Below, piece after piece: positions 11,201-49,877 of a DNA stretch of 64,000 nt (within the stretch, counting starts at the first letter, position 1; each line of letters opens with the position of its first letter). The DNA lies in the NCBI GenBank assembly GCA_938001915.1, contig CALLBD010000003.1, forward strand, positions 40,969-104,968. The letters are read 5' to 3'. This DNA is from an uncultured Caulobacterales bacterium. Lineage in GTDB: Bacteria > Pseudomonadota > Alphaproteobacteria > Caulobacterales > Maricaulaceae. The notes under the pieces were generated by a model that was given only the letters and a program-made list of their open reading frames with translations, was not told where the DNA came from and did not search any database. Both the position numbers and the translations under genes were made by a program.

Positions 11201-14200
11201 GCAACGCGGATTTGAAAATATCCAATTCCGGATTCGCTACACCTGTCACCACGGCGGTATCTGACACTGTCGGCACAGGATCACCATTAGGTAAATTCGC
11301 ACCCACGGAAGCCGTATTCATAACGTCGCCTGCATCAATATCAGCTTGCGTCACGACATAGCTGGCTGAACAGACCATAGAGGCAGCAGGGGCCAGCGTT
11401 GCGGTCGGGCAAGTGACAGACGGTACTAAAGCATCGCTGACCACGACATTAGACAGGGTAATCATGCCGGTATTTTCGACGTCAAATTCATAGGTAAGAA
11501 TATCGCCGGGTTCAGAGAAATCGGTGCTAATAGCCCGCTTTTCAAAGCTAAGACCAGGAGCCGCTGAACTGTCGACAACGGCGCTATCCGCTGTTGTAAC
11601 AGACGGAAGTCCGGGCGGCGGCGTAGCCCCTACAGAGGCATTATTGACAACTTCGCCAGCATCAACATCGGCTTGGGAAACAGTATAGCTTGCGGAACAC
11701 ACCATGGTTGCGGCAGGTGCAAGGCTTGTCTGAGGACAGCTAACAGCGGCGATGATATCATCCGTGATAGAGAGATTTGTGAGTGTCACATTCCCTGTAT
11801 TCTCAACATCAAACTCATAGGTGATGACGTCGCCCGCTGAGTTAAAGTCAGCCGTTGTAGCGCGTTTTTCAAATCCTACTGAGGGCGTACGCGTCCCGCC
11901 GACTGTGACGTCGACTGGCGCAGAAACTAATGTGCCGGATTGCGCAAAGGCTTGGTTCATGATTTCGCCTGCATCCATATCGGCCTGCGTAATCGTGTAA
12001 GTTGCGCGGCAAGTTTGAGTCGCGCCTGGAACTAAATTAGCTGTACCACACGTAATTGTGCCGATTTTATCGTCAACAACTTCAATATCGTTCGTAAGGG
12101 TTAGGTTGCCGTCATTCGTCACGGCAAATTCATATTCCACAATATCGCCCGTCGCCGTAAAGTCAGAAAACAGAGCCGTTTTCACGATGGAAAGCGCAGG
12201 ATTTTGGTCAGCCGGAATCGTCTCCGTTGTTTGCGGTGAGGAAATCGGTCCACTTGCCGCAGACGCAATATTTGTTACCTGCCCAGCGTCCAAATCAGCT
12301 TGGGTCACGGTATAATCTGCCGTACAAGTCAGCGCAGCATTTGGCGCAAGGCCGCCAGCCGGAAGTGCGGGGCAATTGACTGGTGAAATCAAATTATCCG
12401 TCACAACAATAGGATCCGTCAAGGTGACATTACCCGTATTGGTGACAACATACTCATAGGTCGTGATATCGCCTGGTAGCTCAAAGTTCACATTTGTCGC
12501 CGTTTTGACGGTTTCCATGGCGGGCTGCTGATCAGCCGCAATGGTTACGCTATCGGTTGGCGGTGTGAACGTGCCACCAGCTGGGGATGCCGTGGCGGTC
12601 GCATTATTGAGAACATTACCCGCATCCAAATCGGCCTGCGTGACAGCGTAATCTGCGGTACAGACAACCGTCTCACCGGGATCGAGATTGGCGTCGCCAT
12701 TTCCAACAGCCGCGACATCGCAAAGAACCGTAGCGATTTTATCATCAGACACAGCCACATCGCTGACAAGAACATTACCCGTATTTACGATGGTATATGT
12801 GTAGCTCAATACATCTCCGACCGCAGCAAAACGTGTATCGGCGGACGCTTTATCCAGCGTTAGTAATGGCATTTGATCGGCTGCAACGGTTTCCGTCGCC
12901 TCGGGCGCAGTCAAAGTGCCGCCCGCTGGCGTACCATCGGCAGACGCAATATTCGTCACAGACCCCGCGTCGAGGTCTGCCTGCGTAACAGCATATTGAC
13001 CCGTACAAACAACTGTCTCACCTGGATCAAGATTTGCATCACCGTTCCCAACGGCCGCGACATTACATGTCACCGCAGGGATTTTATCATCCGAAACAAC
13101 TAGATCTGAAATCAGAACATTGCCCGTGTTTACGACGGTATAGTCATAGGTCAGCATATCACCGACAGCTGTAAAATCGGTCTCATTTGCGGTTTTGACC
13201 AGCGTCATGGACGGTGTTTGCGTCGCCGCAACAATCGCCTCATCCGTTGGAGATGTCGTGGTGCCGTCCGTGGCGGAAGCGATATTTGTAACTTCACCTG
13301 CATCCAAATCAGCTTGGGTGACGCTATAGCTGCCCGTACATGTCAAAGTCGCAGAAGGAGCCAAGCCGCCAGCCGGGAGGGCTGGACAATTTACAGACGC
13401 AATTTTGTCATCCGATACGCTTATCGGATCAAGCAGCGTAACATTACCTGTATTGGTGACGTCATATTCATAGGTCAGCACATCGCCCACGGAGGCGAAA
13501 TCTGTGTCTAATGCGCGTTTCACCATTTCAAGCGCAGGGCTTTGCGTGCCGTCAACCGTGGCGGTATCGCCAGCGGGGGCGAGCGTGCCGCCAGCGGGCG
13601 TACCAGACGCCTGCGCAATATTTGTGATTGAGCCAGCATCTAAATCAGCCTGGGTTACGACATAAGTCGCGGTACAGACCATCGTCTGCGTCGGCATTAA
13701 ACTTGTCACCGGACAGCTGACGGAGGCAATTTTATCATCTGTGACGACGATATTTGTAATTTCAACATTGCCCGTATTTGTAACCAAATATTCGTAATCA
13801 AGCGTATCGCCAAGGGCAGCAAAATCCGTATCGAGCGCAGTTTTAACAAGCGTCATCATAGGGCTTTGCGTGCCGTCCACAGTCGCTGTATCGGTCGGCG
13901 CAGTCAAAGTGCCGCCCGCTGGCGTACCATCGGCAGACGCAATATTCGTCACAGAACCCGCGTTCAAATCGGCTTGGGAAACCGTATAGCTCGCTGAGCA
14001 TGTGGTGGCCGCGCCAGGTGCCAATGTCGTAACGGGGCAGCTGACCGTCGCAATTTTATCATCCGAGACGCTAAGCGCACTAATCGTAACATTGCCGATA
14101 TTTTCTACATCGAATTCATAGGCCAAGACGTCACCGACGGCTGCGAAACCTGTGTCTAGCGCGCGTTTAGCAAGAGACAGCTCAGGCGCTGGCGCATCTG

Positions 14201-42556: not shown

Positions 42557-43045
42557 CCCAAAGGCATAGGTGATGAAAGACCTGGCAACAAGCCATGGAA
42601 ACCGCTTTGTGCAGAGCGAGCAAATTAGAATCTCAGAAAATACGGGCCCTGACGACGGGAAGATACTCACCCCGCTCGTCAGAGCCCTAATTTATACTCG
42701 CCACAACACGCAAATTTGGCCTACCTCATGTCTCCACAAGGAGCGGTTTAGGTTTAACAATCCGTCGAAACGAGATGGTATCGTTTCATGAGTGGGACTA
42801 CCGGATTCCAAATCATGTCACACGAAGAACACTCCCACTGTTTCACAGTTGGATATATACAAAACTCAAACCATCGTATTGAAAACCCTAAGGTATTTCA
42901 AAATTTTTGCTGTCTTGAACCTGCATTTCATTCTCCGCTAGGAGTATGCCCAAGAGTTAGGTTATCGTCGCCATCCAAACACCAGACGATAGAGGGGTGA
43001 TTTGAATTTTTGTTGTGTAATCAAAGATTCTATCCAGAGATGTAA
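42557..43045. other. Intergenic region before the NACHT gene
   Basis: About 490 bp, AT-rich, separating the apbC operon from the accessory block. It contains a 7-bp inverted repeat, GAAACGA/TCGTTTC (42767-42787), and another, AGTGGGA/TCCCACT, just after it. Two open frames of about 70 codons have no recognisable features and are not called. Presumably it contains the promoters of both divergent units. Confidence 0.45.
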
Positions 43046-45658
43046 ATGAGACCCACAAAGATAATAATTCCCCCGCCCAGAAATTTTGAGACCTATGGGC
43101 CTTCCGAGCTCTTTCGGTTTTTCTTCCAAATTGGTCACTGGACAGAAGACAGTTTTAGCGAGGAGTTTCAAAACTATACTCGCGGGACACTTATTAGCAC
43201 GGTGACAATCAATAAGTGGAAAAATAAGAACGTCATCCCGACGCGTTACTCTGGGCAATTATTCAAAATGATTGAGACCATGTCGGAGCCGCCCATCGGC
43301 AAAGCGTGGATTAAAGCCTTCGAAACGGTTTGGGCCCTTCACGCCGCCGGCCGGTACGCCGATATAGAGTCAACCAGCGAGCGCGCGCCTTCGGACACAG
43401 TATGCAGGCAACATAGAAAGTGGATTCAACACCTCTACACGCAACCTATGGAAGGGCAGAGCTTTTCGACCGCAGATATTTATGTGCCGCTGCAATGTCT
43501 TAACGCATCAGAAGATAGTGGGGAAATTCTTGATGTGGAGGATGCTGCTCAGGCCCGTTCTAAAATGTGGACCTTCATTAGTGGGGGACCTGGATCGGGG
43601 AAATCTATCAGCGCCTTACGTTTGGCAAGATCATTTTGTGAAGGTGATGTTTTCCCAATTTACATCAGAGGCAAGCACGTCTCAGATATTGACATTGATG
43701 TCACGAATAGCACGCAATTTATCTTCGACTCCTTTTCTATCAAATCATTTTTAAAACAGTTTAGGGCCTCTTCCTTTGACAGCGCTTGTTTGATTTTGGA
43801 CGGGCTCGACGAAATAAATCAAATGTCAGGTGGTAGACACAATCGAGTCGCCCAGATTCTATCTAATTTGAAGCTTGAGCAAGCCGCCTGCGCCGCGCAT
43901 GGTAAATCTTTGCAATTCGTTGTATTCGGCCGTGAGCCCCATATTGAATATGCAGCGAGCCTTGTTCAGGATAGTCAGTCTCAGCATTTGACCTTACTAT
44001 CCCTTGATGGCTCACACCCCAGCAAAGAGAAGCTCAATGATTCCAAAACAGGGTCAGATTTACGGCCAATTTGGTGGGAAAAATATCTTGAGGCTACACA
44101 ACGAAATATAGACCCAACTCTACCCGATTTTTTATGTTTAGAATATGATGATTTTTCAAGCTTTGGACTTAACCCCCTCCTTAGCTTTCTGATGTGTCAA
44201 ACGGCATTTGAGCACGCCCAAGATAGCGCGTTCGTAAAATCACCACATGTCAAATTACAACATGAATACATCAACGCCTTCACATATAGATCCAATAAAA
44301 ATGAAATTTACAACTCCATTGTCCAACACATGGCGGGGTCTTTAAGCCATATACTTACGCCCTCTAAGTTCCGCGCGGTCCTTCAACATATTGCGGTATC
44401 AATATGGCAGGCTGGTGACAATTTATCTGTGCCGATTAATCACATATACGACTCCCTTGAAGACGCTGACCAAAAAAGGAGTTTCAAGGCCTTAGGTCTG
44501 GACTCACGCACCCCAACACCACCGGATATTTTTGTCACCTCATTTTATTATCGCGTGACGCCACATGAAAACCAGCCGGAAAATATGAGGGTAGAATTCA
44601 CGGATGAAACATTTTCCGACTATTTAGTGAGTACATTTCTTTTCGATCGGTTTGTCGACTTACTGTCTGCTTTTAAGACAAATGAGAAAACCGAAGAGGC
44701 TTTGAGCGCCTGGGCTAGGGCGTCCAGTTCTGGAGCCCATACACCAAGCCTTGCGGGCTTCTGCCAAAAAGAGGCGATCTTACGCTACGATGACTTCGCG
44801 GACTTGAATTGGGATTTTGCACTAAAGATTATTCAGAGTCACTTATCCCCCCATCATTTTGGGGAAGGCAGCCTTAAGTCTCTCACCCAATTACAACACT
44901 CAAATAGCGTCTTATTTTTTATCTGGTCATGTTTGAATTTGGAGCGATACAAACGGCGCGATACGCATTTTGATATCATCGGAAATACTCAGGATTTCGA
45001 TATAAATACCCTTAGGGTGTTTCAACCCCCTCACTCGGCGTCTCACCAATCGAGCCCTTTCAATAAACACGCCGCAAACCACCACAGCTTTTTATCCTTT
45101 TCGCTATCGGGGCAAAAAGTCTCCGCGGGCGACTTGCGCCAGTTTAACTTCCGCCAGGGGCATATGGAGCATGCAATCTACATAGATACGAACTTTGCTA
45201 TGACCTATTGGAGCCATGTTAAGGTAAGTGACAGTCAATTTAGTCGAGCCACTTTCCAACAAGCCATTATCCATAAATTGCGTGTTTTAAAATCAGACTT
45301 CAAAAATTGCTTATTTCAGGGCTCGCGATTTGAAGGGGCCCTGTTTAACACTTGTCAAATGCGCGACGTTTTCTTTTCTCAATGCCATTTCTCGGAGGTC
45401 GAATTTATGGCCCCTCAATTCGAAAACGTAATTTTCGACCGATGTGTGTTTTCAGATGTTAGTTTTTCTCAGCTTGACGATAGAATCGGTCTTACCGGCG
45501 CGAAGTTTCGATATTGCACATTTCTAGATATGGAAGCTAACATTGAAAAAATCCCTATAGATAATCTGATTGGGACAATTCAGAAAAACCCAGATGGAAC
45601 CACGCCTATTGCCCTGAAAACATCGAAAATTGGGACAGGGTTACAGAAATTTTTATAA
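43046..45658 (+). CDS. NACHT-type STAND NTPase with pentapeptide-repeat C-terminus
   Basis: This 870-residue protein has three parts. Residues 1-80 form an XRE-like helical domain with a final TINKWKNKNVIP pattern, possibly DNA binding. Residues 160-560 form a NACHT ATPase: Walker A GGPGSGKS (180-187), Walker B LILDGLDEI (249-257), a sensor-like VVFGRE, and the GLNPLLSFLM helix region. Residues about 685-825 are pentapeptide-like repeats of A/F-(D/S)-x-(C/L/F)-x type (FKNCLFQGSRFEGALF, FDRCVFSDVSF). NACHT NTPases are antiphage sensors in many bacteria; the right-handed helix here would be the sensing or scaffolding part. No known nuclease or pore effector domain was seen. The weakly conserved N-terminus may be the effector. 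It sits directly upstream of the SET/decarboxylase operon in the same direction. Confidence 0.8.
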   Translation: MRPTKIIIPPPRNFETYGPSELFRFFFQIGHWTEDSFSEEFQNYTRGTLISTVTINKWKNKNVIPTRYSGQLFKMIETMSEPPIGKAWIKAFETVWALHAAGRYADIESTSERAPSDTVCRQHRKWIQHLYTQPMEGQSFSTADIYVPLQCLNASEDSGEILDVEDAAQARSKMWTFISGGPGSGKSISALRLARSFCEGDVFPIYIRGKHVSDIDIDVTNSTQFIFDSFSIKSFLKQFRASSFDSACLILDGLDEINQMSGGRHNRVAQILSNLKLEQAACAAHGKSLQFVVFGREPHIEYAASLVQDSQSQHLTLLSLDGSHPSKEKLNDSKTGSDLRPIWWEKYLEATQRNIDPTLPDFLCLEYDDFSSFGLNPLLSFLMCQTAFEHAQDSAFVKSPHVKLQHEYINAFTYRSNKNEIYNSIVQHMAGSLSHILTPSKFRAVLQHIAVSIWQAGDNLSVPINHIYDSLEDADQKRSFKALGLDSRTPTPPDIFVTSFYYRVTPHENQPENMRVEFTDETFSDYLVSTFLFDRFVDLLSAFKTNEKTEEALSAWARASSSGAHTPSLAGFCQKEAILRYDDFADLNWDFALKIIQSHLSPHHFGEGSLKSLTQLQHSNSVLFFIWSCLNLERYKRRDTHFDIIGNTQDFDINTLRVFQPPHSASHQSSPFNKHAANHHSFLSFSLSGQKVSAGDLRQFNFRQGHMEHAIYIDTNFAMTYWSHVKVSDSQFSRATFQQAIIHKLRVLKSDFKNCLFQGSRFEGALFNTCQMRDVFFSQCHFSEVEFMAPQFENVIFDRCVFSDVSFSQLDDRIGLTGAKFRYCTFLDMEANIEKIPIDNLIGTIQKNPDGTTPIALKTSKIGTGLQKFL

Positions 45659-45720
45659 TATTTTCAGAACCCTAATACGCAAACACATCTATTAGTTTAT
45701 AGTGAGTTAATGGCGTCTTT

Positions 45721-45742
45721 TCCGCTTCCGCGTGTAAGCGGA
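45721..45742. promoter_or_regulatory. Hairpin covering the ribosome site of the 43-residue ORF
   Basis: TCCGCTT (45721-45727) pairs perfectly with AAGCGGA (45736-45742) around an 8-base loop. The 3' arm holds the GGAG-like site just before the ATG at 45747, so folding would hide it. It could be a translational switch or attenuation signal for the operon. Confidence 0.5.
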
Positions 45743-45746
45743 GTTC

Positions 45747-45878
45747 ATGAAAACATCCCAGAAACCCAATTTTAAATCAAAATCCCCTTCCTTAAAACGC
45801 CTGATCTTTCATGCGCTATTTGGTAGAAAACGCGTGTCTTTCTGCACGCCTATTGCTCTTGCGTCACGCCGCAAATGA
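45747..45878 (+). CDS. Small, extremely basic 43-residue ORF heading the operon
   Basis: This ORF encodes 43 residues: about 12 Lys or Arg (seven Lys, five Arg), one His and no Asp or Glu. Its stop overlaps the next start by four bases (ATGA: TGA 45876-45878, ATG 45875), the same coupling used by the next pair in this operon. A GGAG-like sequence stands before the ATG, inside a hairpin. Lys-rich segments KTSQKPNFKSKSPSLKR and a GRKR stretch are visible. With a SET methyltransferase two genes later, it could be a modified substrate or a small DNA- or RNA-binding peptide. This is inference. A leader peptide or spurious ORF cannot be excluded; no family is recognised. Confidence 0.5.
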   Translation: MKTSQKPNFKSKSPSLKRLIFHALFGRKRVSFCTPIALASRRK

Positions 45879-47116
45879 CCCGCCTTCATTCAAGCCAGAA
45901 GATTAGGCGACGGGATGTTTTTGCGTTTGCCAGATTAGCTATACGCCCGCTTTTAAGCTTGACGGCTATCGCCCTCTTCACACCGAAACGCACGCGGCAA
46001 ATGGCAGACCTTTTTGCGGAACTTTACTCTCGGCTCTGGGATTGTGCCGAGCATTCAATTTCTCACCAAGGGTTTACCTTGCCATCTGCCCTTGGCGATG
46101 ATCCAGTCCACCGAGTCAATGAACACCTTAAACAACTTTATGGAAGTCAATTTGCAAGTCTTTCAATGGGGGGGTCTTCCGGCGCAATGTTAGCTTTATT
46201 GACCGCCGTCCTACCCAAATTAAATCCTAACCGAGAGTTTATCCTTTTCGACGACGCTTGCCACCAAAGCACAATTGGCGGTCTGATATTTGGGCGATGG
46301 AAAGCCATTCGTTTGCCAAGAGAAAATTGTGAGAGCCGCCAAACTATATATCCGGTTAAATTTGAAGCCCTAAAAGCGCGTATTGAAAAATACGGTCCTG
46401 AAAATTTTGCGGCAATAATATTGGTCCTTCCGTCTTACGATGGGTTTCGGTCTCCCTCGGAGGATCAAAGAATTTACCAATATGCGCGGAACTTAGGTAT
46501 TCCTGTGATTGTTGATGGCGCCTGGGATGCATTGAGGTTTCACGGGCCTAAAGCCCAAACCCCGCCACTTTCCTCTATCTGCGACGTTTGGATTACGAGC
46601 CCCCATAAGCGCGGGCTAACCCCTTCAAGTCTTGGCTGCGTTCTCACAGATAATGAGAGCATAATCCGCCTCTGGGATGAGGCTATGGATTTAGGTTTTC
46701 GGTCCTCTAGTGTGTCTTTTGTAGAGATTATGATTGCAGAATATAGGCTGTCGCAAATTCTAGCTGGCCGTTGGAAGAAAAATTTTGACGACGCCGACAG
46801 AGCCGCGAAAATATTGCGCGCCCGTATTAAAGACATTCATCCAGATCTGGAAATTACAACGGCCCCTCAGGTTCAGGCTGAAATCCATGACCCCACACAT
46901 TTATTGATTGGTACACAAAATATTCCAGATCTAGACGCGCGGGCTTGGGCCAATATTCTAGCAAATGATTTTGCGATCGATATCGAAAAAGCGACAAGGT
47001 CCTCTCTGCTACTTCTATGCGGTGACCCTATACATTTGAGGCATATCGACCAGATTATTGAAAGCTTTGGGGCCGCTCTAAAAATAGCTCTAGAGAGAAC
47101 AGCGAAGTACACATGA
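45875..47116 (+). CDS. PLP-dependent protein of the Orn/Lys/Arg decarboxylase class-I fold, lacking C-terminal domain
   Basis: Family pattern in order: GGSSGAMLALLTAV (cofactor phosphate contacts), FDDACHQST (His130, ring-stacking position), VLPSYDGFRS, VIVDGAWDAL (Asp214, pyridine N contact) and the Schiff-base lysine in TSPHKRG (Lys245). These match the major domain of bacterial Orn/Lys/Arg decarboxylases. In relatives the DEAHGA motif has a His after Asp; here it is DGAWDA, so chemistry may differ. The protein has 413 residues and ends before the usual C-terminal domain. A motif of that domain occurs at the start of the next gene, so the enzyme seems split. It overlaps both neighbours by four bases. 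Substrate unknown: decarboxylation or transamination of Lys/Arg-like amino acids is suggested by family. Confidence 0.8.
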   Translation: MTRLHSSQKIRRRDVFAFARLAIRPLLSLTAIALFTPKRTRQMADLFAELYSRLWDCAEHSISHQGFTLPSALGDDPVHRVNEHLKQLYGSQFASLSMGGSSGAMLALLTAVLPKLNPNREFILFDDACHQSTIGGLIFGRWKAIRLPRENCESRQTIYPVKFEALKARIEKYGPENFAAIILVLPSYDGFRSPSEDQRIYQYARNLGIPVIVDGAWDALRFHGPKAQTPPLSSICDVWITSPHKRGLTPSSLGCVLTDNESIIRLWDEAMDLGFRSSSVSFVEIMIAEYRLSQILAGRWKKNFDDADRAAKILRARIKDIHPDLEITTAPQVQAEIHDPTHLLIGTQNIPDLDARAWANILANDFAIDIEKATRSSLLLLCGDPIHLRHIDQIIESFGAALKIALERTAKYT

Positions 47117-48777
47117 CACGCAAAACAGATGAATGCCTGCGGCCCTGGGACGCCTTTATCGCCCCAACTGAACGGATAGATTTAGCAAGAGCCTCTGGCC
47201 GAATTGCAGCCTCAACTATTCGGCAATATCCGCCGGGAATACCAGAAATCATACCAGGCACCCAATATTCTCCAGACGTCATCAAGTCTCTTGAGAGCGC
47301 CCATGCCGCTCAAGCTAAAATTATTGGCATCAACATGGCGGCGGATCGCAAGGTAGATGTTCTTAAAGACTTAGGGCGGCAGGCAGAAAAATTGGATATC
47401 CAAGTCTTTGAGTCTCGAAGTATAGACGGTTCAACATCGGATGAGATAGCCGATTTTTTTAGAACCTCTTTCAGCGCGGCGCCTTATTATCACTTCGCCT
47501 TTCATGAAAGTGAGCCCTTAGACTCTCTGCCCCCCACGCTCGATTTCGAAGCCTATGCGGTCAGCATCGCCCTCACCGACCCAGAAAAGCGAAAAACCTG
47601 CCAAGACGCTTTGCGAAGTGTGGCTTATGAAAAAGCGGTGCATGCCAATGCATCCGCTGATTTAAGTAGCATCATTCTGCCAAAAGGATTTCACCTTTGG
47701 ACCGATAAAGCCCTGTGCCGAAAACATATAAAGGACCGTCTTTCTGATCCCGGATATGTCACCCTTGTTCGGCATAAGGATACTGGAAAACTCTTGGGTT
47801 TGCTGCACTCAAGAATGGGAACGGTCAGAAGAATTTTTCAATCTGAGGAGTGGTCCGATCCCTTACTTTTCAGCACCTATAGTGATGCCAAGAAATTAGC
47901 GGATGCCAAACAGTTTTTCGAAAAAGTCGACTATCATTTTGGCCTAAAGCCAAACGACCCCATAATGACAATTTCGGCACAAGTTCTCGCTCCCGAAATT
48001 CAGGGCGGTGATGTATTTTATCAAATGATTAAACCTATGGCAGAGCTTATCAGTCCGCAGCACGCAGCCCTGCCCTTACTCAGCGAAATTTCTCTTCATG
48101 GCACTGCGCATGTATTGAACACGTCCTTTACGGATCGTATTGTTTTTGGCGTTCTCAAAAACACACACCCCCTGGTGTATTGTTCACAAATGAACCAAGC
48201 ACTTTTCCTTTTCACGAGCGAGAAAAAACATTGGCATCACGCCCTGAGAAAAGCTGCCCGCGAAAACCTAGAGTATCGCAAACAATATTTTATTTCCCAT
48301 CATACCGACAATAAGCATGTAAAAGTGCGGCCTAATGGTCCGCTAGGATTAGCTGTTTTTGCGATTAAGGACATCCCCGCAAAAACGCGTATTGCCGTTT
48401 TTAGAGGAGAAACCTATCGCTCAACCTCTGCTGTCAATTTACCCGAAATTATGCGAGACCACGCCATTCAAGTCGGACCGGAAGAATTTGTTTTTGGGTA
48501 TAAAGGCTTGGCACATTGCCTGTGTCATTCTTGTGACCCCAATTGCGGGATCAGAAATCTCACGGAGATTTTTACCATAAGAGACATTGCCGCAGGGGAG
48601 CAGCTATCATGGGACTACAGATGTTCAGAGAACTCAGACTGGGTTTTGGAAACCTGCCTTTGCGGTAGCGAAAGATGCACGGGTACAGTCAAGAATTTCG
48701 ACAGTCTTCCACGTGAAATAAAAGCAGAGTATCTCGCTAAATCCATGGTTTCCGAATGGATTAGAGAAAATATTTAG
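47113..48777 (+). CDS. SET-domain methyltransferase fused to a decarboxylase C-terminal motif and a possible GNAT-like domain
   Basis: The 554-residue protein has three zones. Residues 28-60 contain GRIAAS, YPPGIPEIIPG and a following helix, as in the C-terminal domain of Orn/Lys/Arg decarboxylases (GRIAAE, YPPGIPLLVPGE type). Residues about 190-370 have an alternating fold with VTLVRHKDTGKLLGLLHSRM and a later SAQVLAPEIQGGDVFYQMI, suggestive of a GNAT-type acyltransferase; this is uncertain. Residues about 403-526 form a SET domain: NGPLGLAVFA (cofactor loop), HSCDPNC (472-478), QLSWDYR (498-503) and post-SET cysteines CLCGSERCTG (515-524). The usual NHSC Asn is Cys here (CHSC). SET enzymes methylate protein lysines. 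It overlaps the PLP gene by four bases and ends two bases before the convergent luxR-type stop. Confidence 0.8.
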   Translation: MTRKTDECLRPWDAFIAPTERIDLARASGRIAASTIRQYPPGIPEIIPGTQYSPDVIKSLESAHAAQAKIIGINMAADRKVDVLKDLGRQAEKLDIQVFESRSIDGSTSDEIADFFRTSFSAAPYYHFAFHESEPLDSLPPTLDFEAYAVSIALTDPEKRKTCQDALRSVAYEKAVHANASADLSSIILPKGFHLWTDKALCRKHIKDRLSDPGYVTLVRHKDTGKLLGLLHSRMGTVRRIFQSEEWSDPLLFSTYSDAKKLADAKQFFEKVDYHFGLKPNDPIMTISAQVLAPEIQGGDVFYQMIKPMAELISPQHAALPLLSEISLHGTAHVLNTSFTDRIVFGVLKNTHPLVYCSQMNQALFLFTSEKKHWHHALRKAARENLEYRKQYFISHHTDNKHVKVRPNGPLGLAVFAIKDIPAKTRIAVFRGETYRSTSAVNLPEIMRDHAIQVGPEEFVFGYKGLAHCLCHSCDPNCGIRNLTEIFTIRDIAAGEQLSWDYRCSENSDWVLETCLCGSERCTGTVKNFDSLPREIKAEYLAKSMVSEWIRENI

Positions 48778-48778
48778 A

Positions 48779-49669
48779 TCAAGAGGGCATGCCAACCAGT
48801 TCTGCCGTGTGATCTCCTAAGAGGCTCAGAAAACTATAATGTTGGTCTAATAAACGCGTGGGTGTATTGCGCGTTGGGTCAGTTTTCACACCGAGTTTAA
48901 GAATTGTTTTATCGCGGACCATGGCTAAATCCTCTTTTAGCGTGCTAGCTGTGATGCCCAAATCCTTGGCCTGTTGTTCAAAGCTCTGCAAAGGCGAGTT
49001 TATATATTTTCGGAGATTTAGCAGACGGCTCTCGGTTAGCCCTGATAACAAGAAAAACAACTTCTTCAATCTCAACTCATCAAAAACACCCGAACGATAG
49101 AACCACGCCAAAGCAAAGGGGAAGGAGGCTAATTCAATTTTTATATGATCAAATGAAACCCAATTCACATTGTTTTTGTCCCCCATATAGTCGAAGGATA
49201 AAAATGTGCTTTCATGGCCCGGGTTTAGAAACCCAACTGACATCGAGTGATAAATTCCAAATTTCAGACAGTGATTAATGAAAAAAGGAAAGTCTTCTAC
49301 CCGCTCGGCTCGACAAATATGCGTATAATTCAAAGCGCGTCCTGGGTTCGCATAAACCACGGGCGAGAGCGTATCCAAATGGGCATTGTGCATATAGCTG
49401 ATCAAACATTCCTCTGGTAAATTCCAAAGAACAGTTTGAATATCAGGGGCCAGGCCTTTTTCGCTCAGCTTAATCTGACTTGTTGTGCAAAACTCATAGG
49501 TAAAATCTGGAAAAATATCTTCAAATACGCGGTTTTGAAATGCCGAAAACGCCAAATCGCCCTCTTTAGATACAGGCGTGACTTTCGCCATATGGAAAAT
49601 TTCTTCAAGGGAGTCAGATGCCAGAAGCCTCTTTATCGAATTTTTATACTGACGCGAAATCCCAGCCAT
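48779..49669 (-). CDS. LuxR-type regulator with autoinducer-binding-like domain
   Basis: Residues about 75-185 resemble the autoinducer-binding domain: LISYMHNAHLDTLSPVVYAN (Tyr and Asp as in TraR positions 61 and 70) and GIYHSMSVGF. The Trp that normally accompanies these (TraR W57 position) is not obvious, so ligand specificity may be altered. The C-terminal HTH is degenerate GerE type: LTESRLLNLRKYI, then DLGITASTLKEDLAMVRDK and a final LKLGV. No luxI gene is in the window, so it is a solo regulator. It converges on the SET gene with one base between stops. A palindrome lies just upstream (49686-49698). Confidence 0.75.
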   Translation of the reverse strand: MAGISRQYKNSIKRLLASDSLEEIFHMAKVTPVSKEGDLAFSAFQNRVFEDIFPDFTYEFCTTSQIKLSEKGLAPDIQTVLWNLPEECLISYMHNAHLDTLSPVVYANPGRALNYTHICRAERVEDFPFFINHCLKFGIYHSMSVGFLNPGHESTFLSFDYMGDKNNVNWVSFDHIKIELASFPFALAWFYRSGVFDELRLKKLFFLLSGLTESRLLNLRKYINSPLQSFEQQAKDLGITASTLKEDLAMVRDKTILKLGVKTDPTRNTPTRLLDQHYSFLSLLGDHTAELVGMPS

Positions 49670-49802: not shown

Positions 49803-49877
49803 TGGTGGGCGATACTGGGATTGAACCAGTGACCCCTACAATGTCAATGTAGTGCTCTCCCGCTGAGCTAATCGCCC
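49803..49877 (-). tRNA. tRNA-Val (GAC)
   Basis: On the minus strand the acceptor stem GGGCGAT pairs with ATCGCCC, followed by a genome-encoded ACCA end. The anticodon stem CTACA/TGTAG encloses TTGACAT, anticodon GAC, for valine. D-arm GCTCAGCGGGAGAGC and T-arm with GGTTCAATCCC are canonical. Its 3' end faces the accessory block 42.6-49.7 kb. I saw no second copy of the 3' end as an att site nor an integrase. Confidence 0.95.

What the first reader, a model, noticed from the sequence alone, without database searches (positions are those of the whole stretch)
45747..45878. 43-residue highly basic peptide as possible substrate or RiPP-like precursor
About 12 of 43 residues are Lys or Arg with no acidic residues. 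The stop/start overlap with the next gene mirrors the coupling between the other two genes. With a SET methyltransferase and a PLP enzyme downstream it may be a modified peptide. It is short enough to be missed by routine gene calling.
Basis: partly seen in the sequence, partly recalled or inferred. Interest (0 to 1): 0.7.

Follow-up and report, generated by a model that had tools for sequence, protein, structure and literature searches.

The report
Detached front piece of split decarboxylase
A 43-residue unannotated gene is real and conserved, and it most likely encodes the broken-off front segment of a vitamin-B6-dependent amino-acid decarboxylase that here is spread over three neighbouring genes, rather than a peptide hormone or antibiotic precursor.

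Summary
The small ORF (45747-45878) is genuine. All 8 genomes of the genus (Hellea/Litorimonas clade) that hold the PLP gene also carry it, overlapping the PLP start codon. Synonymous sites are saturated while amino acids are constrained. Two distant relatives of the PLP enzyme (another genus of the family; a Mesorhizobium plasmid) also have a small ORF just upstream with a similar C-T/S-P motif. Ordinary Orn/Lys/Arg (OKR) decarboxylases do not.

The PLP proteins are OKR decarboxylases that lack the N-terminal 'linker' segment carrying (F/W)(C/H)TPGH. The peptide aligns to exactly that missing segment (lysine decarboxylases read ALFtYVkerKYTFCTPGH; the peptides read RSLFVKPRLSFCTPV). The OKR C-terminal domain is also detached: it forms the N-terminus of the next protein, followed by a probable GNAT acyltransferase and a SET methyltransferase. 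Best reading: three co-linear, translationally coupled genes encode one decarboxylase tethered to acyl- and methyl-transfer domains, making a modified amine, possibly a signal for the adjacent LuxR-like regulator.

A RiPP-type substrate is not excluded but is less likely. The split-segment homology is statistically moderate (1/300 column shuffles) and untested by structure or experiment. New variant of a known enzyme kind.

The parts
45747..45878 (+). 43-aa microprotein; proposed detached N-terminal linker segment (LF..+.R.sFCTP) of the OKR decarboxylase
45740..45743 (+). GGAG, weak Shine-Dalgarno of the microprotein (better spaced ones in most relatives)
   Evidence: sequence
45690..45712 (+). 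DNA element conserved in 8/8 loci (GTTTgGAtTrGGTTyATGGgc in relatives), about 40-60 bases upstream of the microprotein start; candidate promoter or operator
45875..47116 (+). PLP-fold-I core of the decarboxylase (413 aa): H130, D214-x-A-W217, S-P-H-K245 conserved; lacks the TPGH linker segment and the C-terminal domain
   Evidence: PF01276 OKR_DC_1 in 7 of 8 orthologs, best E 1.1e-7; residue alignment; hhalign
47113..48777 (+). 554-aa fusion: OKR decarboxylase C-terminal domain + probable GNAT acyltransferase + SET methyltransferase with post-SET cysteines
47167..47319 (+). OKR_DC_1_C domain (aa 19-69)
   Evidence: PF03711, 8/8 orthologs, E 6e-7 for this protein
47392..48147 (+). probable GNAT domain (about aa 94-345)
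   Evidence: Foldseek top hits are polyamine/agmatine N-acetyltransferases, E 1e-3, from a low-confidence model; no Pfam match
48346..48618 (+). SET domain (aa 412-502)
   Evidence: PF00856 E 4e-9, 8/8 orthologs; HSCDPNC and DYRC motifs
48779..49669 (-). convergent LuxR-like regulator (assignment weak); best conserved protein of the block (63-81% identity)
43046..45658 (+). STAND/NACHT-type NTPase with pentapeptide repeats, same block in 8/8 genomes
42981..42998 (.). imperfect copy of an 18-bp dyad (perfect ACCCGACGATCGTCGGGT in three relatives) upstream of the NTPase gene

Best explanation
The microprotein is the detached N-terminal linker segment of an Orn/Lys/Arg-type PLP decarboxylase whose chain is encoded co-linearly by three coupled ORFs: microprotein (linker with FCTP), 413-aa PLP core, and a C-terminal domain now at the front of a GNAT-SET protein. 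Start/stop overlap makes the pieces together so that they can assemble; the microprotein packs against the PLP core where the linker lies in intact enzymes and completes the fold or the active site. The fused C-domain brings the GNAT and SET sites to the decarboxylase, so the amine product is acylated and methylated in the same complex; the adjacent LuxR-like regulator may sense the product. Shown: conservation, coupling architecture, homology of core and C-domain, absence of the linker from the core ORF. Moderately supported: homology of the microprotein to the linker. Inferred: assembly, reaction, product and sensing.
For: (1) Clade-wide pairing: 8/8 genus genomes, and short upstream ORFs in both other members found of the PLP clade, which a 100/100 branch separates from ordinary OKRs; ordinary OKRs checked have no such ORF. 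(2) Complementary coverage: the PLP-clade profile aligns to OKR columns 45-372 (E 4.5e-29), G018 PLP alone 44-360, Mesorhizobium 59-372, the genus profile alone 75-372; the missing columns 1-43 hold the TPGH-type motif in 10 of the 11 OKRs of the profile; the peptide profile aligns best to columns 24-33 of the same profile (2/150 column shuffles as good against the full profile; 1/300 against columns 1-45). (3) Single peptides: 7 of 8 genus peptides p 0.003-0.023, Mesorhizobium p 0.017, and it still reads CTP..GHTFGG. (4) Lysine decarboxylases read PPFTKALFTYVKERKYTFCTPGHMGG, in the LdcI linker region, residues 130-183, which flanks the PLP subdomain (PMC4832331). (5) The other end of the enzyme is also detached: OKR_DC_1_C at the N-terminus of the SET protein in 8/8.
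Against: The linker match rests on about 10 residues and moderate p values; G018 and L011 are not significant alone (p 0.27-0.28). The genus peptides lack the GHxGG half of the motif. The peptide profile from the genus does not find the G018 or Mesorhizobium peptides at a significant E-value by itself, so homology between lineages leans on position and motif. The window's own PLP protein is below Pfam detection. AlphaFold models of the partner proteins were poor, and no complex could be predicted.
Confidence: 0.58

Rival explanations
1. RiPP-like precursor or carrier: the peptide is a ribosomal substrate modified by the decarboxylase-like enzyme, GNAT and SET domains (for example at Cys33 or the conserved Lys), giving a modified peptide signal sensed by the LuxR-like protein.
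For: Conserved C-terminal 'core' with Cys-Thr-Pro and a Lys near the end; neighbours encode methyl- and acyl-transfer domains; regulator next door; the Mesorhizobium copy sits near ATP-grasp, MATE and Xaa-Pro peptidase genes.
Against: Pairing is with the PLP enzyme even without GNAT/SET (G018, Mesorhizobium). The N-terminus varies and the C-terminus is fixed, the reverse of usual leader/core behaviour. No RiPP-class enzyme, transporter or protease in the genus block. No Pfam/NCBIfam match. The OKR-linker match gives a simpler account.
Confidence: 0.17
2. Nascent-chain regulatory leader: the peptide stalls the ribosome in response to an amino acid or polyamine and so controls the overlapping decarboxylase gene, like SpeFL/ORF34 of speF.
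For: Short basic ORF directly upstream of an OKR-type gene; variable N-terminus and conserved C-terminal part; conserved promoter-like element shortly upstream.
Against: The Cys-to-stop distance differs (11, 12, 13, 14 residues in genus, L016, G018, Mesorhizobium), so there is no fixed stop-codon register. No conserved RNA structure (0 pairs), no Rfam hit, no room for a control region: orf34 starts at +32 and speF at +516 (PMC6386406), whereas here the ORFs overlap. Synonymous sites are saturated.
Confidence: 0.1
3. Independent small protein (activator, antizyme-like inhibitor or membrane tether) that binds the PLP enzyme but is not derived from the OKR linker; the FCTP match is chance.
For: Strict co-occurrence and coupling; amphipathic basic sequence; hydrophobic basic N-terminus also on the PLP protein.
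Against: The best profile match falls at the segment missing from the PLP ORF, and the motif recurs in three lineages.
Confidence: 0.15

Closest known systems
Wing-type OKR decarboxylases LdcI/LdcC, AdiA, SpeF (PF01276 + PF03711)
   Same: PLP fold-I core with stacking His, D-x-A-W, S-x-H-K; linker motif FCTPGH; C-terminal domain
   Different: Here no N-terminal wing; linker, core and C-domain are on separate ORFs; CHKS becomes CHQS, D(E/S)AW becomes DGAW; C-domain fused to GNAT-SET
SpeFL/ORF34 leader peptide of speF
   Same: Short basic ORF upstream of an OKR decarboxylase gene
   Different: No long leader, no conserved RNA structure, direct start/stop overlap, no fixed register to the stop codon
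BurB/BurI of Burkholderia DMSP synthesis (PMC12542666)
   Same: A SET-domain methyltransferase works in one small-molecule pathway with the enzymes (BurI among them) that convert S-methylmethionine onward to DMSP; our SET profile hits BurB (9l4t, E 7e-8)
   Different: Hits histone methyltransferases equally well (MLL1/HRX E 5e-8); fused to GNAT and OKR C-domain; substrate unknown; BurI itself was not compared here
LuxR-type solo regulators
   Same: Autoind_bind at E 0.025 in 2 of 8; collinear profile match E 0.03; 18-bp dyad in the block
   Different: Below every curated threshold; no LuxI in the block

Membership tests
Orn/Lys/Arg decarboxylase (OKR, PF01276/PF03711) | PLP fold-I major domain | tested here: met
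   PF01276 in 7/8 orthologs, best E 1.1e-7 (the window's own protein was not detected); profile E 4.5e-29 with distant members included
Orn/Lys/Arg decarboxylase (OKR, PF01276/PF03711) | Catalytic Lys, PLP-binding Asp, stacking His | tested here: met
   K245, D214, H130 align in all
Orn/Lys/Arg decarboxylase (OKR, PF01276/PF03711) | C-terminal domain | tested here: met
   present but in trans, on the SET protein, 8/8
Orn/Lys/Arg decarboxylase (OKR, PF01276/PF03711) | TPGH-type linker segment before the PLP domain | tested here: inconclusive
   absent from the PLP ORF; FCTP half found on the microprotein at p about 0.003-0.013
Orn/Lys/Arg decarboxylase (OKR, PF01276/PF03711) | Decarboxylase activity on a basic amino acid | not testable with these tools
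   needs enzyme assay
RiPP precursor peptide | Class-defining maturation enzyme, with protease or transporter nearby | tested here: not met
   none seen in the 5-gene block
RiPP precursor peptide | Conserved leader followed by a modified core | tested here: inconclusive
   N-terminus variable, C-terminus conserved, the reverse of the usual pattern; modification itself not testable
Regulatory arrest leader (SpeFL type) | Leader separated from the gene by a structured control region | tested here: not met
   overlap in 8/8; 0 conserved pairs
SET-domain methyltransferase | SET fold motifs and post-SET cysteines | tested here: met
   PF00856 8/8; HSCDPNC, DYRC, CLC...C
GNAT acyltransferase | GNAT fold with acyl-CoA loop | tested here: inconclusive
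   Foldseek E 1e-3 to GNATs from a pLDDT 47 model; no Pfam match
LuxR family | Autoinducer-binding domain and GerE-type HTH | tested here: inconclusive
   E 0.025-0.05; controls 0.15-0.97

The most novel reading that the evidence does not exclude
A decarboxylase broken into three coupled pieces, with the smallest a 40-residue active-site segment supplied in trans, is physically tethered to an acyltransferase and a SET methyltransferase to build an acylated, methylated amine that is a new class of bacterial signal, read by a divergent LuxR-like receptor encoded next door.
Probability: 0.14. Interest if true: 0.8.

Novelty: new variant of a known kind. Interest (0 to 1): 0.5.

Why it matters
If true, it shows a catalytic chain that evolution has cut at its domain borders into separately translated pieces, the smallest a microprotein that gene callers can miss, and it gives a rule for finding others: look just upstream of decarboxylases that lack their TPGH segment. 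It would also explain one class of conserved small ORFs that look like RiPP precursors but are enzyme pieces. The OKR C-domain/GNAT/SET fusion next to a LuxR-like regulator is an unexplored candidate route to a modified-amine metabolite or signal in marine bacteria, with a named strain that holds it (Litorimonas cladophorae KCTC 23968).

Tried and rejected
Programmed frameshifting that would fuse peptide and PLP: rejected, no conserved slippery site and the relative frame differs between lineages. Conserved RNA structure: none; Rfam: none. Peptide homologs without the PLP gene: none in 137 family, 398 order or 289 class genomes at meaningful E. PLP homologs in viral contigs: none. AlphaFold models of the regulator and SET protein: too poor to use as evidence except for a GNAT-like fold match. 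LuxR assignment by profile: only suggestive. BurB-like Met S-methylation: possible, not distinguishable from lysine methylation by sequence. The first attempt to test the linker idea, with 8 OKR linkers, was weak; the fuller profile was better.

Full report
OBSERVATION. The ORF at 45747-45878 is as described: 43 codons, 12 Lys/Arg, no acidic residue, TGA overlapping the ATG of the next gene. It is not chance. The window belongs to an alphaproteobacterial genome, and a scan of 60 related genomes found the PLP gene in 8 of the 18 genomes of the genus, at 51-60% identity in the 7 relatives, plus one distant hit in another genus of the family, G018. Named records place the genus in the Hellea/Litorimonas clade; one is the named strain Litorimonas cladophorae KCTC 23968. 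Every one of the 8 has a 37-43 aa basic ORF immediately upstream of the PLP gene, overlapping it by ATGA (GTGA in one). A profile of these peptides finds those 8 places at E of 9e-18 or better and nothing better than 0.02 elsewhere in the genus. Searches of 137 family, 398 order and 289 class genomes added only G018, which had been put into the profile. Synonymous sites are saturated (pS 0.77) while replacement sites are constrained, most in the C-terminal part (pN 0.28, 0.11 in one subclade), and the other reading frames give pN/pS above 1. This is selection on the protein.

SURROUNDINGS. The same five-gene block lies at the same place in all eight genomes, between a gene of unknown function and a tRNA-Val/response-regulator region: STAND NTPase with pentapeptide repeats, microprotein, PLP protein, SET protein, and a convergent regulator. 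In G009, which lacks the block, the two flanking genes stand about 0.8 kb apart with only the tRNA-Val and the response regulator between them. The PLP protein is an OKR decarboxylase by Pfam in 7 of 8 orthologs, with His130, Asp214, Trp217 and Lys245 conserved. The SET protein begins with the OKR C-terminal domain in 8 of 8 and ends with a SET domain whose catalytic and post-SET motifs are intact; the part between resembles GNAT acyltransferases (from a low-confidence model). The regulator looks LuxR-like but only at E about 0.03.

DISTANT PAIRS. The G018 PLP protein (24% identical) carries its own C-domain and is preceded by an ORF ending ...ICQALFALQSRVKLCSPTGALRQTPRV, with no SET gene nearby. 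A plasmid search with it found a Mesorhizobium 'hypothetical protein' preceded by an ORF with no listed gene, ending ...LSAALLQGIPRRKWCTPLRSGHTFGGRY two bases before the PLP start. The genus profile does not detect these two peptides significantly by itself (per-ORF p about 1.5e-4 for G018, from E 0.065 over 435 ORFs, and about 0.003 for Mesorhizobium). The PLP proteins with such an ORF form one side of a 100/100 branch against ordinary OKRs (long branches noted). Ordinary OKRs checked have no comparable upstream ORF.

THE KEY COMPARISON. Nearly all OKR decarboxylases compared carry a motif just before the PLP domain: P(L/F)..aL..yv.....(F/W)(C/H/Y/F)(T/S)PGHxGG; in E. coli LdcC it is PPFTKALFTYVKERKYTFCTPGHMGG. 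[quoted passage not shown] in a homologous arginine decarboxylase the C-terminal domain forms part of the entry channel (PMC8983666). Against an 11-sequence OKR profile of 375 columns, the PLP proteins of the peptide-bearing clade align only from column 44-59 on (45-372 for the joint profile, E 4.5e-29; the genus profile alone gave 75-372). They lack the segment with TPGH. The peptide profile, compared with the same full profile, aligns best to columns 24-33, RKRVSFCTPI against ykYTFCTPGH: the missing segment (2 of 150 column shuffles score as high; 1 of 300 against columns 1-45). Seven of eight genus peptides and the Mesorhizobium peptide are individually significant against shuffles at 0.003-0.023; G018 and L011 are not. 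Order along the DNA (linker piece, core, C-domain) is the order along an intact decarboxylase chain.

INTERPRETATION. The simplest account is a decarboxylase split at its domain borders into three coupled ORFs in this genus and into two in G018 and Mesorhizobium. The microprotein would supply the linker segment in trans. This accounts for the position, the overlap, the constant pairing with the PLP gene irrespective of SET/GNAT, the conserved CTP core and the free N-terminus. It does not account for the loss of the GHxGG half in the genus. The product is probably a small amine, acylated by the GNAT domain and methylated by the SET domain tethered through the C-domain; the DMSP pathway, where SET enzyme BurB methylates methionine (PMC12542666), shows that a SET domain can act on a small molecule. 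Substrate and product are inference.

RIVALS. RiPP-type substrate: possible, but no class-defining enzyme, protease or transporter in the block, and the conservation is reversed from the usual leader/core. Arrest leader as for speF (PMC6386406): the overlap leaves no control region, there is no conserved RNA structure, and the distance from Cys to the stop varies from 11 to 14 residues. Unrelated small partner protein: not excluded, but the location of the profile match would then be coincidence.

VERDICT. Observation confirmed; the gene is real. Interpretation revised from precursor peptide to detached enzyme segment, confidence about 0.58. New variant of a known kind; moderate interest, higher if the tethered decarboxylase-GNAT-SET complex makes a signal.

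Noticed in passing
window 42981-42998; L013:973, L014 (reverse complement):2965, L015:4654: 18-bp dyad ACCCGACGATCGTCGGGT (perfect in three genomes, 3-4 mismatches in the other five) once per locus upstream of the STAND NTPase gene; size and symmetry recall LuxR-type operators.
   Followed up: partly
window 45690-45712: DNA element GTTTgGAtTrGGTTyATGGgc conserved about 40-60 bases upstream of the microprotein in 8/8 loci though the flanking DNA has diverged; no known promoter type recognised.
   Followed up: partly
window 43046-45658: STAND/NACHT-type NTPase with C-terminal pentapeptide repeats and a conserved HTH-like N-terminus, always part of the block; weak similarity to anti-phage DS8 and Hailong HalA models.
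   Followed up: no
window 49803-49877; L016 (G007) around 11245-12459 of its reverse complement: The block sits beside tRNA-Val(gac); G009 has the empty site (tRNA and response regulator only), and in G007, where no tRNA-Val was found in the stretch, an integrase-like ORF lies at the corresponding place: a likely integration hot spot.
   Followed up: partly
L074 1462-13245 (Mesorhizobium sp. AR10 plasmid pMspAR10a): Cluster of lysine 2,3-aminomutase, two ATP-grasp-like enzymes, split OKR decarboxylase with microprotein, MATE exporter and Xaa-Pro peptidase: looks like an uncharacterised lysine-derived metabolite cluster.
   Followed up: partly
window 45875-46010: The first ~45 residues of the PLP protein are basic and hydrophobic (possible membrane-associating helix) and have no counterpart in OKR decarboxylases.
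   Followed up: no
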